This document shows, in pieces, positions 8,288 through 11,627 of a stretch of DNA of 11,627 bases. The notes below the pieces were generated by a model. That model had not been told where the DNA came from. It was given only the letters and a program-made list of their open reading frames with translations, and ran no database searches. Source of the stretch: Planctomycetota bacterium (GTDB lineage: Bacteria > Planctomycetota > Planctomycetia > Pirellulales > Pirellulaceae); assembly GCA_026692885.1 (NCBI GenBank), contig JAPLNJ010000405.1, forward strand, positions 1 to 11,627. Direction: 5' to 3'. The position numbers and the translations under genes are program-made. How positions within the stretch are numbered: position 1 is the stretch's first letter; every line of letters begins with the position of its first letter.

Positions 8288-8428
8288 TCACTTCGGCGGC
8301 TGGTTCACCAGCAGCCAGTACAGGCCCAGTTTGCTCATGGCATCGATAAAGACATCGGCACTGACAGGCTTCACCACGTAGCTGTTCGCGCCGAGCGCAT
8401 AGGCTATCTTGATATTACTTTCCTTGTC
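8288..8428 (-). pseudogene. C-terminal remnant of an Rcp1-like response regulator
   Basis: A 46-codon reading frame ending in TGA at 8288-8290 encodes the last third of a receiver domain: AYALGANSYVVKP with the conserved lysine, then DVFIDAMSKLGLYWLLVNQPP, the usual ending of small Rcp1-type regulators that follow phytochrome-like and related sensor kinases. The N-terminal two thirds, including the phospho-acceptor Asp and the start codon, are absent; the frame is closed by TAG at 8429-8431. The remnant overlaps the last 14 bases of the receptor-kinase gene in another frame. The simplest reading is a deletion that removed the kinase-regulator gap and most of the regulator. It cannot be functional as it stands. 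Confidence 0.85.
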
Positions 8429-11400
8429 CTAAGGTAAAATGTAACGTCGCCCCTTGGCCAATTTCTCCTTCCGCCCAGACCCGGCCACCGTGGCGATTGA
8501 TGATACGTTGCACAATGGCCAGCCCCACGCCCGTGCCCTCGAACTCCTGGCTGCTGTGCAGTCGCTGAAACACCCCGAAGAGCTTGTTCACGTACCGCAT
8601 GTCGAAACCCGCGCCGTGGTCCCGGACCGAATACACGATCTCGCCTGCCCGCTGCTCCGCGCTCACCTCGATCACGGCCCGTTCGTTCTTGGAGGAATAC
8701 TTGATCGCGTTCGAGAGCAGGTTCCTCCAGACCTGACGGAGGAGGGTCGGGTCCCCGACCACGAATGGCAGAGCGCCGACGTGAAGATCGATCCGCTCCC
8801 GGCCTGCGGGAGTTGTCAATTCAAAGAAGATCGACCTGGCCATGGTCGCCAGGTCCACGGCCGCAAGCTGCATGTCCGCCCGGCCAACGTGCGAGAAGGC
8901 CAACAAAGCGTCAATCAGCTGGCTCATGTCCCTGGCGCTCTGGCTGATGACGGAGCAGATGCGCTGTCCCTCGGCATCCAGATAGGATCCATAGTCTTCG
9001 AACAGGATGCGGGTGTAGCCGTCCACAGCCCGTAGCGGCGCTCGCAGGTCGTGGGACACCGAGTAGGAGAATGCTTCCAGCTCCTTGTTGGCGGCCTCCA
9101 ATTGGGCCGTGCGTTCGGTCACGCGCTGCTCCAGTTCTGCGGCATGGCGCCGCGTCTCTTGCAGCAGACGGGCCTGTTCGATCGCAATGGTGATCTGCCC
9201 CGCCACTTCACCGGCGATCTCGATTTCCTCCGAAGTCATGGGTCGGGGACTCTCCCAGCCGACATTCAACGCGCCGTACAAGCCCTGTGCCGAAACCAGC
9301 GGCACGTTGATGGAGGACCGTGTTCCTTCCGCCTGGAGGAGTCGAGCCACAACCGAAGGCGACATCCCCGGGGTCGTGTCCTCCACGATCTCCATCTTGC
9401 CTTGCCGCAAGATCTCCAGATCTCCATAGGCTTCCTCCGCCAGGACCTTTCCGGTCTGCACGCTCGTCACACCGTTCACGTCGGCCGCGAAAATCCGCAC
9501 CTCCTTTCTTCCCAGATCAAAGATGCCGACACTGGCGCGTTGGCAATGCAGCAGGCCGCGGAGATGCAACAGGGTCGTCTGGGCAATCTCTTCGGGCGAT
9601 TCGACGGACTGCCGAATGGCCTGGTCGATTTTGTGCAGGTTCTGCAAACGCTCGGCTTGCCTGTGCACGGCCACCTCCGCCCGCTGGTGCTCGGCAATCT
9701 CCGCCTGGAGCAATTGGTTGGAGCGGGCCAGTTCGGTGGTGCGTTCCGCGACGCGTTGTTCCACCTCCGCATGGGCGCGGCGCAGCTCGCTCTGCGTCTG
9801 CTCCAAAGTGGTCTTTTCGCGTTGGAGTTCCCGGTTGAGCGTCCGCAGTTGGGCGGGGCTGGGAAGGGCCAGGAGTTTGGGGAGCAGGGGCCAGATCACG
9901 ATGGCCGAGGCCAGGGAAATGACGGCGCAAAAACTGTCCACCAGGGCTTGCCACCAGTCCACCTGACGCCAGATCCCGATGATATGGACAAAATGCGTGG
10001 TTCCGCAGGCCAGGATGAACGCGCCAAACAGGACCAGGACCCAGGAAAACGGCAGGTCCTTTCGCTTCGTAACAAACACCACCAGGAACACCGGGATGGA
10101 AGCGTACGAGACGGCGATCAACCCGTTGGCAATCGCCATGACCATCATCAGGGCCGGCGTCATGGTGCCGACCAGCGCGCCCCGGATTTCCGGCCCGTCC
10201 CCCATGGTCAGCATGGGCAAGACAATCAGGATGGCCAGCGCGGCGGCCGGTGCCAGGATGCGGGGCAGGAGGGAGAAGATTGCGGATTGCAGATTGCGGA
10301 TTGCGGATTGCGGATGGTAGCAGGGTGGGCTGGGCGGCGCGACGGGGCGGCCGATGGCGCCGCGCAGACGCAGGCTGTTGGTGACGACAAAGACGGAACT
10401 GAAGGCCATGGCGCCGGCGGCAAGCATCGGACTCAGCAGACCGTAAGCAGCCAGCGGAATCAGGGCCACATTGTAGAACAGCGCCCAGACCAGATTCTGG
10501 ATGATGGTCTGGAGGGTGTCACGGGACAAGGTAATGGCCCGCCCCACCCCGCGCAGATCGCCGCTGATCAACGTGATACCGGCGGACGCCATCGCCACAT
10601 CGGTGCCGGTGCCAATGGCCAAGCCGACGTCGGCCTGCGCCAGCGCCGGAGCATCGTTGATGCCATCGCCCACCATGGCGACCACGGGGCGGGGCAAGCC
10701 GGCCGCCGAACTGCCGGCCTGCAGTTTTCGGATCAGCCCCGCTTTTTCGCCGGGCAGCACTCCCGCGCACACCCGATCGATGCCCACCTGCGCGGCAATC
10801 GCCTGGGCCGTGCCAAGGTTGTCGCCGGTCAGCATCACCACCTCCAGGCCGAGCTGGCGCAGTTCGGCGATGGCTTCTCGGGAGCCGGGCTTCACTGTAT
10901 CGGCGACCGCCACAGCGCCTCTCAGGCGAATCGGCAGGAGGCCCTCCGCGCCACTGGCGGCCACCAGTATCACGGTTTTGCCTGCGGCCTGCAGCCGGGT
11001 GACGTCCGGTTGCAGGGCGTCCAGGGCAAGGCCCTCCTGCTCCATCATCCGCGGATTACCGATGATCACGGTTTGGCGGTCCACGGTGGCGTGAATTCCC
11101 AAACCGCCGGCCGCCCGAAACTGCTCCGGCTCAGCCAGACTCAGGCCCCGCTCGTGCGCCGCCTTGACCAAGGCCGCGCCCAGGGGGTGCTCCGAGCCGC
11201 GTTCCGCGCTGGCCGCCAGTCGCAACACGTCATTCGCCAGGTGCGACGGCGCCACGAGGATGTCCGTGACCTCCGGCTGGCCTTGCGTGATCGTGCCGGT
11301 CTTGTCCAGCACCACCACGGTCACGCGACCGGCGCGTTCCAACGCTTCGCTGGTTTTGAAAAGAATTCCCTGCTCCGCGCCTTGGCTCGAACCCACCAGG

Positions 11401-11627
11401 ATGGCCGTCGGCGTGGCCAGGCCGATGGCACAGGGGCACGCGATGACCAGCACCGCGACGGCATTCATCAGCGCCGCCGACCAGCCAACCCCGGCGACAT
11501 TGAGCCAACCGAGGAAGGTCAACAACGCCAGCGCCACAATGATCGGCACGAAATAGCGGCCGATCTCGTCCGTCAGATTTTGGATCGGCGCTTTGCTGGA
11601 TTGCGCTTCCTGCACGAGGCGCACGAT
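8415..11627 (-). CDS. Cu(I)-ATPase / ethylene-receptor-like histidine kinase fusion (partial, 5' end beyond window)
   Basis: Open at the right edge; residues are numbered from the GTG at 11624. Residues 1-421 are a P1B-1 copper ATPase from just after the actuator domain: CPC at 63-65, phosphorylated D107 in DKTGT, H146-P147, TGDN (266-269), GDGIND (319-324), Y384-N385 and M406..S409-S410, the full Cu(I)-site signature. The metal-binding N terminus and TGE loop lie outside. A linker (422-455, with a 7-bp repeat) and an extra hydrophobic helix (about 456-474) follow. Residues 489-585 are an ETR1-type membrane domain: SYASIP (506-511), then FGAFILACGTTH with the Cu-binding Cys540 and His544. A coiled coil, GAF (about 660-820), HisKA (H858 in VSHDLRAPLRA) and HATPase (N972, DHGAGFD, GTGVGL) complete it. 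Frame is uninterrupted. Expected role: inner-membrane copper pump joined to a Cu-dependent sensor kinase. Ligand (ethylene or copper) is inferred. The last four residues probably derive from the deletion junction at 8429. Confidence 0.95.
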   Translation of the reverse strand: MVRLVQEAQSSKAPIQNLTDEIGRYFVPIIVALALLTFLGWLNVAGVGWSAALMNAVAVLVIACPCAIGLATPTAILVGSSQGAEQGILFKTSEALERAGRVTVVVLDKTGTITQGQPEVTDILVAPSHLANDVLRLAASAERGSEHPLGAALVKAAHERGLSLAEPEQFRAAGGLGIHATVDRQTVIIGNPRMMEQEGLALDALQPDVTRLQAAGKTVILVAASGAEGLLPIRLRGAVAVADTVKPGSREAIAELRQLGLEVVMLTGDNLGTAQAIAAQVGIDRVCAGVLPGEKAGLIRKLQAGSSAAGLPRPVVAMVGDGINDAPALAQADVGLAIGTGTDVAMASAGITLISGDLRGVGRAITLSRDTLQTIIQNLVWALFYNVALIPLAAYGLLSPMLAAGAMAFSSVFVVTNSLRLRGAIGRPVAPPSPPCYHPQSAIRNLQSAIFSLLPRILAPAAALAILIVLPMLTMGDGPEIRGALVGTMTPALMMVMAIANGLIAVSYASIPVFLVVFVTKRKDLPFSWVLVLFGAFILACGTTHFVHIIGIWRQVDWWQALVDSFCAVISLASAIVIWPLLPKLLALPSPAQLRTLNRELQREKTTLEQTQSELRRAHAEVEQRVAERTTELARSNQLLQAEIAEHQRAEVAVHRQAERLQNLHKIDQAIRQSVESPEEIAQTTLLHLRGLLHCQRASVGIFDLGRKEVRIFAADVNGVTSVQTGKVLAEEAYGDLEILRQGKMEIVEDTTPGMSPSVVARLLQAEGTRSSINVPLVSAQGLYGALNVGWESPRPMTSEEIEIAGEVAGQITIAIEQARLLQETRRHAAELEQRVTERTAQLEAANKELEAFSYSVSHDLRAPLRAVDGYTRILFEDYGSYLDAEGQRICSVISQSARDMSQLIDALLAFSHVGRADMQLAAVDLATMARSIFFELTTPAGRERIDLHVGALPFVVGDPTLLRQVWRNLLSNAIKYSSKNERAVIEVSAEQRAGEIVYSVRDHGAGFDMRYVNKLFGVFQRLHSSQEFEGTGVGLAIVQRIINRHGGRVWAEGEIGQGATLHFTLGQGK
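10279..10313 (-). repeat. Heptanucleotide tandem repeat inside the fusion linker
   Basis: Five units of ATTGCGG (one is ATTGCAG) on the plus strand, read as CCGCAAT in the gene and translated as HPQSAIRNLQSAI. It lies between the last ATPase helix and the extra helix that precedes the receptor domain. Three units make 21 bp, so the current number keeps the frame, but gain or loss of one unit would shift it. Arrays of this heptamer encoding NPQSAIR-like peptides recur in unrelated bacterial ORFs, as I remember, so it is probably an inserted mobile or expanding repeat. Confidence 0.92.

What the first reader, a model, noticed from the sequence alone, without database searches (positions are those of the whole stretch)
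8415..11627. Copper-exporting ATPase fused in frame to an ethylene-receptor histidine kinase
Seen: one uninterrupted frame holds all P1B-1 Cu(I) signatures (CPC, DKTGT, GDGIND, YN, MxxSS), then an ETR1-type membrane domain with the Cys-x3-His copper site, GAF, HisKA and HATPase. Known: ETR1 and cyanobacterial SynEtr1 bind ethylene only through Cu(I), and in plants the copper ATPase RAN1 loads that copper. Inference: pump and copper-requiring receptor have become one protein, so copper may be handed directly to the sensor, or pump activity may be reported to the kinase. I know of no described protein with this architecture.
Basis: partly seen in the sequence, partly recalled or inferred. Interest (0 to 1): 0.95.

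Follow-up and report, generated by a model that had tools for sequence, protein, structure and literature searches.

The report
Copper pump fused to its sensor
This bacterial gene joins a copper-export pump, an ethylene-receptor-like membrane domain and a signalling kinase in one protein, an arrangement also found in many other environmental bacteria, and it likely lets the cell sense the copper it is pumping out rather than ethylene.

Summary
In detail: window 8415-11627 (minus strand) is one open frame, cut at its 5' end by the window edge, with a P1B-1 Cu(I)-ATPase C-terminus, ETR1_N, GAF, HisKA and HATPase. It is not an artefact: 119 of the 120 listed database hits carry ATPase signatures upstream of ETR1_N in one chain; the 120th is a cut piece with the pump's end. 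Fused loci also occur in Verrucomicrobia, Bacteroidales, Acidobacteria, Syntrophobacteraceae and Spirochaetaceae records. Trees of ETR1_N and of the ATPase each make the fused proteins one group, so one fusion event is the simplest reading.

New here: the fused ETR1_N is not a standard ethylene-receptor domain. ETR1's Asp25/Lys91 pair is Asn/Asp in 133 of 133 fused rows and in 0 of 90 unfused loci. A Met-rich outer loop (5-8 Met in 30 residues, versus 0-3 in 88 unfused) and an extra His are fused-specific. The Cys-x3-His copper site is kept. Best reading: Cu(I) leaving the pump is captured in cis and reported by the kinase. Ethylene sensing stays possible but is less supported. Ten searches of open papers showed no description.

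The parts
10353..11627 (-). C-terminal part of a P1B-1 Cu(I)-exporting ATPase (residues 1-425; 5' end beyond the window)
   Evidence: Pfam E1-E2_ATPase and Hydrolase; 3j08 E 1e-103
11430..11438 (-). CPC transmembrane copper motif (residues 64-66)
   Evidence: sequence
11292..11306 (-). DKTGT phosphorylation motif (residues 108-112)
   Evidence: sequence
10653..10670 (-). GDGIND motif (residues 320-325)
   Evidence: sequence
10395..10475 (-). YN (385-386) and MxxSS (407-411) Cu(I) transport-site motifs
   Evidence: sequence; an MxxSS pattern in 133 of 133 fused rows
10278..10315 (.). heptamer tandem repeat (GATTGCG, 5.4 copies) inside the coding linker
   Evidence: the only array that my pattern found in the window and 177 loci
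10212..10265 (-). extra hydrophobic helix between pump and ETR1-like domain (residues 455-472)
   Evidence: conserved P460, L464, L467, P471; hydropathy and predicted helix in relative P0010
10137..10214 (-). Met-rich loop and start of ETR1 helix 1 (residues 472-497: M472, M475, M489, M494, M495, M497), predicted extracytosolic
   Evidence: fused-specific
9864..10151 (-). ETR1_N three-helix domain (residues 493-588) with N501 (=ETR1 D25), C541 (=C65), H545 (=H69), H548 (=N72), D564 (=K91)
   Evidence: Pfam PF25487 E 3e-30; residue tables
9993..10007 (-). Cys-x3-His copper-site motif (C541-H545)
   Evidence: sequence
9600..9857 (-). predicted helical linker to the kinase (residues 591-676)
   Evidence: sequence; long helices in the P0010 model
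9180..9596 (-). GAF domain (678-816)
8889..9077 (-). HisKA domain (851-913)
8430..8756 (-). HATPase_c domain (958-1066)
8288..8428 (-). 46-residue C-terminal remnant of a single-domain response regulator, out of frame with the kinase and preceded by a stop
7383..7967 (-). response regulator (REC plus C-terminal tail), 194 aa
5048..6856 (-). hybrid kinase with two receiver-domain matches, HisKA and HATPase_c, 602 aa

Best explanation
The gene encodes one protein in which a Cu(I)-exporting P1B-1 ATPase is followed by an altered ETR1-type membrane domain and a histidine kinase, and it likely works as a copper pump that hands some of its exported Cu(I) to its own sensor and so reports copper export or outer copper level to the kinase. 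Shown: the fused frame, its conservation in several phyla, both trees with the fused proteins as one group, the near-constant linker, the extra hydrophobic segment, the fused-only Met-rich loop, the kept Cys-x3-His, the extra His, and the Asn25/Asp91 replacement. Inferred: (1) the pump releases Cu(I) on the outer face, as CopA does; (2) the extra helix turns the chain so that the Met-rich loop sits on that face; (3) the Met side chains pass Cu(I) into the C541/H545/H548 site, with D564 and N501 as second-shell or further ligands in place of ETR1's Asp25/Lys91; (4) occupancy changes kinase output to a response regulator. The ETR1_N part would thus have been recruited from ethylene or other Cu-dependent receptors and re-tuned to the metal itself.
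For: Architecture and frame. Family. Asn25 with Asp91 in 133 of 133 fused rows; of 90 unfused loci Asp25 is in 79, Lys91 in 72, and the Asn/Asp pair in none (L043, a contig-end piece among the 90, has Asp91 with position 25 missing; P0035, unfused by motif, has the pair but is itself a cut fusion). All ten marks (M475 M489 M494 M495 M497 N501 C541 H545 H548 D564) in 128 of 133 fused rows, among them the window and 13 of 13 loci; Met in the 30 residues before position 25: mean 6.2 (5-8) versus 0.94 (0-3) in 88 unfused, where composition predicts 0.8 and 0.7; H548 in 1 of 88 unfused. Distance from MxxSS to the Asn: 81-84 residues in 120 of 131 rows measured (2 of 133 not measured). One group in the ETR1_N tree (36 fused rows, SH-aLRT 92, not starred) and in the ATPase tree (21 fused rows, 95). 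ETR1_N has the lowest pN/pS of the parts compared with L001, L003 and L004 (0.13, 0.19, 0.22; ATPase 0.22, 0.27, 0.35). Copper-type neighbours: a DsbD_2 gene with a sub-threshold cupredoxin match upstream in L001 and a cupredoxin piece in L004, 2 of 20 neighbours scanned. Regulators of the remnant's type lie just downstream in L002, L008, L143 and L144, 4 of 11 loci looked at.
Against: No experiment. The P0010 model is weak exactly at the ETR1_N part (10-residue mean pLDDT 37-69 over residues 731-840), so no geometry backs the relay. Asp-to-Asn is reported to lower, not abolish, ethylene binding. Conserved Met could be structural. 18 of the 20 neighbours scanned have no copper-type domain, and neighbours in L003, L006 and L144 were not scanned. 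15 of the 120 listed relatives show no HATPase_c (PF02518) by my reading, and at least seven of these look complete, so an attached kinase is not universal; my strict kinase-box patterns were met in only 90 and 70 of 133 rows. The 119 proteins were ranked by likeness to the window, which favours shared residues, and ten loci were found by likeness too; only L066, L140 and L141 were found by the Pfam model alone, and they agree.
Confidence: 0.5

Rival explanations
1. Ethylene (or another small pi-acid ligand such as CO) receptor with a built-in copper loader: the pump serves mainly to load the Cu cofactor.
For: Tyr32, Ile35, Pro36, Ile62, Cys65 and His69 equivalents kept in 129-133 of 133 fused rows; in plants RAN1 passes Cu to ETR1 (PMC13012798, PMC12586476, passages).
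Against: Asp25 and Lys91 equivalents replaced in 133 of 133; the Trp- and Cys-bearing N-terminal cap of most unfused proteins is replaced by Met; a complete export pump is more than loading one ion should need (inference).
Confidence: 0.25
2. Transport-coupled switch: the ETR1-like bundle reads the pump's conformational cycle through the linker, and its metal site is structural or vestigial.
For: Near-constant linker length; strong constraint on ETR1_N.
Against: Metal-type residues are nearly invariant and have gained Met and His, which a vestigial site should not; some relatives, the window included, tolerate longer linkers.
Confidence: 0.17
3. The ETR1-like domain and the soluble part regulate the pump (feedback on export), with signalling secondary.
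For: Fused proteins that end without a kinase exist, e.g. P0021, P0062, P0095.
Against: 105 of the 120 listed relatives carry HATPase_c (PF02518) by my reading.
Confidence: 0.06
4. Chance or assembly joining of two genes through the heptamer repeat.
For: The linker holds an intergenic-looking 7-bp repeat.
Against: Fusion in 119 of 120 listed hits and in 13 loci; 120 of 131 measured rows have the shorter linker, and no locus other than the window showed the array.
Confidence: 0.01

Closest known systems
CopA-type P1B-1 Cu(I)-ATPases (PDB 3j08, 3rfu)
   Same: all signature motifs; E 1e-103 over residues 1-425 and 1e-100 over 1-422
   Different: CopAs end after the last pump helix (recalled); here an extra helix, ETR1_N and a kinase follow
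Arabidopsis RAN1 (HMA7) plus ETR1
   Same: a copper ATPase and a Cu-dependent three-helix receptor with kinase-type output that work together (PMC12586476, PMC13012798, passages)
   Different: two separate proteins in plants; ETR1 has Asp25/Lys91 and no Met-rich cap; the plant model favours transfer from the pump's metal-binding domains
Bacterial ethylene receptors SynEtr1 and AzoEtr1
   Same: ETR1-type domain with a histidine kinase, a PAS domain between them in AzoEtr1 (PMC11819568, passages)
   Different: not fused to a pump; AzoEtr1 keeps the Asp (D35)
CusS/CopS copper-sensor kinases
   Same: membrane histidine kinases that answer to copper (CusS with Cu(I): PMC10968091 passage; the rest recalled)
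   Different: periplasmic sensor domain unrelated to ETR1_N and no fused pump (recalled)
Transporter-kinase fusions such as CbrA (recalled)
   Same: transport protein and histidine kinase in one chain
   Different: secondary transporter of the SLC5 type, not an ATP-driven metal pump

Membership tests
P1B-1 Cu(I)-exporting ATPase | CPC, DKTGT, GDGIND, YN and MxxSS in order | tested here: met
   sequence. In the 133 fused rows, many of them partial: CPC 127, DKTGT 127, GDG[IV]ND 129, YN pattern 123, MxxSS 133
P1B-1 Cu(I)-exporting ATPase | N-terminal HMA domain with CxxC | tested here: inconclusive
   outside the window; CxxC in the first 200 residues of 109 of 118 fused rows with 700 or more residues before ETR1_N
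P1B-1 Cu(I)-exporting ATPase | ATP-driven Cu(I) export | not testable with these tools
   needs a transport assay
Ethylene receptor (ETR1 family) | three-helix ETR1_N domain | tested here: met
   PF25487, 104.7 bits, cut-off 27
Ethylene receptor (ETR1 family) | Cu(I) ligands Cys65 and His69 | tested here: met
   C541, H545; Cys in 132 and His in 133 of 133 fused rows
Ethylene receptor (ETR1 family) | Asp25 | tested here: not met
   Asn in the window and in 133 of 133 fused rows
Ethylene receptor (ETR1 family) | Lys91 partner of Asp25 | tested here: not met
   Asp in the window and in 133 of 133 fused rows
Ethylene receptor (ETR1 family) | saturable ethylene binding | not testable with these tools
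   needs a binding assay
Two-component histidine kinase | HisKA with phospho-acceptor His and HATPase_c | tested here: met
   SHDLRAP in the sequence
Two-component histidine kinase | cognate response regulator next to it | tested here: inconclusive
   only a 46-residue remnant directly downstream; an intact regulator and a hybrid kinase follow

The most novel reading that the evidence does not exclude
A previously undescribed class of self-loading copper transceptor: an ATP-driven Cu(I) pump that passes its cargo through a Met-rich outer loop into a re-engineered ethylene-receptor bundle in the same chain, turning copper flux itself into a kinase signal; ETR1-type domains would then have a second, metal-sensing branch.
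Probability: 0.42. Interest if true: 0.9.

Novelty: new variant of a known kind. Interest (0 to 1): 0.76.

Why it matters
In plants the copper ATPase and the ETR1 receptor are separate proteins and the contacts that pass Cu(I) between them are not resolved (PMC13012798, passages). Here the two are tethered with a near-fixed spacing, so transfer could be studied in one purified protein. If the sensor answers to copper rather than ethylene, bacterial 'ethylene receptor' domains split into two chemically distinct branches that a two-residue test (positions 25 and 91) tells apart.

Tried and rejected
Assembly or chance join: rejected. Ordinary ethylene receptor: weakened by Asn25/Asp91. Own genome: none held. 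Plasmid-borne fusion: tblastn with P0010 in 72,556 plasmid records gave 4256 records with a match but none in which one place covers 80% of the query; the 15 rows listed match the pump part alone. PDB relative of the extra helix plus ETR1_N: none at E up to 1. My first such search had been made in a wrong reading frame and is void, as is alignment A2. AlphaFold2 model of full-length relative P0010 (56 rows): mean pLDDT 75.4, pTM 0.55, weak over ETR1_N, so no geometry was drawn from it and no fold search was run. Frames upstream of ETR1_N in L048, L082, L107, L129, L142 and others were read by eye and look like stop-to-stop artefacts, not fusions. The kinase-part values compare unlike modules and are not used. 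Seven of the 97 unfused survey loci (L091, L092, L120, L124-L126, L138) were not recognised by my own profile and are not in the 90.

Literature: ten searches, listings only, except passages of PMC11819568, PMC13012798, PMC10968091, PMC11213822, PMC12586476 and PMC6586836; PMC10266040 is not held. Nothing in these listings and passages describes the fusion. Subscription papers and preprints outside the library were not searched.
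Full report
CHECK OF THE OBSERVATION. The frame 11627 to 8415 (minus strand) is open for 1070 codons. Pfam finds E1-E2_ATPase, Hydrolase, ETR1_N, GAF, HisKA and HATPase_c in that order, all over their cut-offs. The pump part matches solved copper-exporting P-type ATPases best. The gene starts outside the window. In relatives the missing part usually holds an HMA-like motif: CxxC in the first 200 residues of 109 of 118 fused rows with at least 700 residues before ETR1_N.

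IT IS A FAMILY. By signature motifs 119 of the 120 have the ATPase upstream of ETR1_N in one chain, and the last, P0035, begins inside the ATPase's end. Genome contigs gave 32 loci, of which ten (L001-L010) hold the fusion. Their record titles name Verrucomicrobia, Bacteroidales, Syntrophobacteraceae, Acidobacteria (with Geothrix, Holophagaceae and Thermoanaerobaculia) and Spirochaetaceae. In these ten genomes the ETR1_N model finds one copy each, apart from a second, contig-end piece in one.

HOW COMMON. Groups are named from the seed locus's record title; the tool itself names none. ETR1_N at E up to 0.001: 20 of 288 genomes of the Verrucomicrobia seed's phylum, 16 of 247 Bacteroidales seed, 11 of 199 Acidobacteriota seed, 4 of 198 Syntrophobacteraceae seed, 22 of 299 Microvirga seed, 6 of 200 Gemmatimonadetes seed, 13 of 188 Kofleriaceae seed and 6 of 77 in the order of the Holophagaceae seed. 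Besides the seeds, only L066, L140 and L141 are fused. So in this sample ETR1_N is mostly unfused, and the fusion is a minority branch that is well represented in the protein collection.

THE FUSED ETR1_N IS DIFFERENT. The 90 unfused loci (of 97; seven weak ones were not recognised by my profile) have Asp25 in 79 (Asn in 8) and Lys91 in 72; Asp25 with Lys91 together in 70; Asn25 with Asp91 in none. L043, counted among the 90, has Asp91 with position 25 missing and is open at a contig end. Column by column (133 fused, 89 unfused including ETR1), residue 489 is Met in 130 versus 0, 494 in 133 versus 1, 495 in 133 versus 0, 497 in 131 versus 3; the unfused rows mostly have Trp at 489 and 495 and often His at 497; 548 is His in 133 of 133 fused rows; 567 is Cys in 110 of 133. 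The 30 residues before position 25 hold 5-8 Met in fused and 0-3 in 88 unfused rows, without overlap. Cys65 and His69 equivalents stay. The fused-specific residues fall on the ends of helices 1, 2 and 3 that are extracytosolic in ETR1's accepted topology (recalled).

LINKER. From the pump's NSLRL to helix 1 the distance is 62-65 residues in 103 of 110 measured rows; 33 of the 143 rows tried (ten being re-fetched copies) escaped the pattern. A second measure without copies, MxxSS to the Asn, gives 81-84 residues in 120 of 131 rows; the other 11 are 78, 88, 94 (two), 96 (two), 100, 104 (three) and one of 27 that is probably a false start of the pattern; two of 133 were missed. The linker contains a conserved hydrophobic segment, read as one extra transmembrane helix by hydropathy and as a helix in the P0010 model. 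That would put the chain back on the outer face before ETR1 helix 1. The longer linkers include the window, P0001 and P0007-P0011, several with QSAIRNPQSAI-like insertions; in the window this is a heptamer repeat.

ORIGIN AND CONSTRAINT. In an ETR1_N tree of 36 fused rows (13 loci, the window and 22 of 119 proteins drawn at random) and 88 other rows the fused rows are one group (SH-aLRT 92, not starred, few columns for so many rows). In an ATPase tree of 21 fused rows (12 loci, the window and eight proteins that I picked) and 16 unfused, the fused are again one group (95). Both fit one fusion event followed by spread between phyla (inference). pN/pS of ETR1_N, ATPase and linker against the window is 0.13, 0.22 and 0.68 for L001, 0.19, 0.27 and 0.39 for L003, 0.22, 0.35 and 0.57 for L004. 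Of 13 fusion genomes, 11 have at least one further P1B ATPase match at E up to 1e-50 and two (G002, G010) have none, so the fusion is usually an additional pump.

SURROUNDINGS. In 11 fused loci, response regulators of the remnant's type follow directly in L002, L008, L143 and L144 (positions worked out), and a REC-kinase follows in L145. Pfam was run on 20 neighbours from eight of the 11 loci; not on those of L003, L006 and L144. Two of the 20 carry a copper-type domain: a DsbD_2 protein with a cupredoxin match just under its cut-off (25.8 against 27 bits) upstream in L001, and a cupredoxin piece in L004 (31.7 bits). Cytochrome bd genes lie upstream in L143. In the window only the last 46 residues of such a regulator remain, out of frame and overlapping the kinase's end; P0001 has the same kinase end, which suggests an inherited deletion. 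A 194-aa response regulator and a hybrid kinase follow.

MECHANISM. I commit to a cis copper relay: pump, Met-rich outer loop, Cys/His/His site, kinase. Steps shown are sequence facts; Cu(I) transfer, the sensing of copper rather than ethylene, and the direction of the kinase response are inferred. The ethylene reading is kept as the main rival, because an Asp-to-Asn change is reported to lower affinity about 100-fold rather than to destroy the receptor (PMC13012798, passage; no residue number is given there, and I take it to be Asp25), while PMC11819568 (passage) says mutation of D25 eliminates binding. Kinase parts vary: 15 of 120 listed relatives show no HATPase_c by my reading, and my strict kinase-box patterns were met in 90 and 70 of 133 rows.

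NOVELTY. None of the listings and passages from ten searches of the open library describes a P-type ATPase joined to an ethylene-receptor domain. Where a source names such a relative, it is mostly 'heavy metal translocating P-type ATPase', 'Cu+-exporting ATPase' or 'P-type Cu+ transporter', so the architecture is stored but, as far as seen, undiscussed. Every module is known, hence 'new variant of a known kind'.

Noticed in passing
window 8288-8428 (-): 46-residue C-terminal remnant of a single-domain response regulator behind and overlapping the kinase's end; best match 63% over 43 residues to a regulator in L011. P0001 shares the kinase's odd end.
   Followed up: partly
window 10278-10315: Heptamer repeat in the coding linker. 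A gain or loss of one 7-bp unit would shift the frame, so copy-number change could in principle switch between pump alone and full fusion; no variation was looked at in reads.
   Followed up: partly
P0021, P0030, P0060, P0062, P0093, P0095, P0112 and window 7383-7967: Fused relatives without a kinase end in a tail like GRExRxxELKxEVNxL...G...RY, which also lies near the end of the window's 194-aa response regulator (by eye). It may dock such proteins to a partner.
   Followed up: no
window 522-2264 and 2495-4834 (+): Two neighbouring proteins of unknown function, 32% identical over 579 aligned positions; only the second has a Pfam hit, CBM_4_9.
   Followed up: partly
window 4878-5005 / 7079-7206; 8086-8183: A 128-nt direct repeat (88%) and a 43-nt inverted repeat (86% complementary).
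   Followed up: no
L143 3812-6204: Cytochrome bd genes (subunits I and II) just upstream of the fusion in G481.
   Followed up: no
unfused ETR1_N loci L061, L062, L071, L085, L089, L134, L136, L137: 8 of 90 unfused ETR1_N loci have Asn at position 25 with Arg, Lys, Leu or Asn at position 91: natural variants worth an ethylene-binding test.
   Followed up: no
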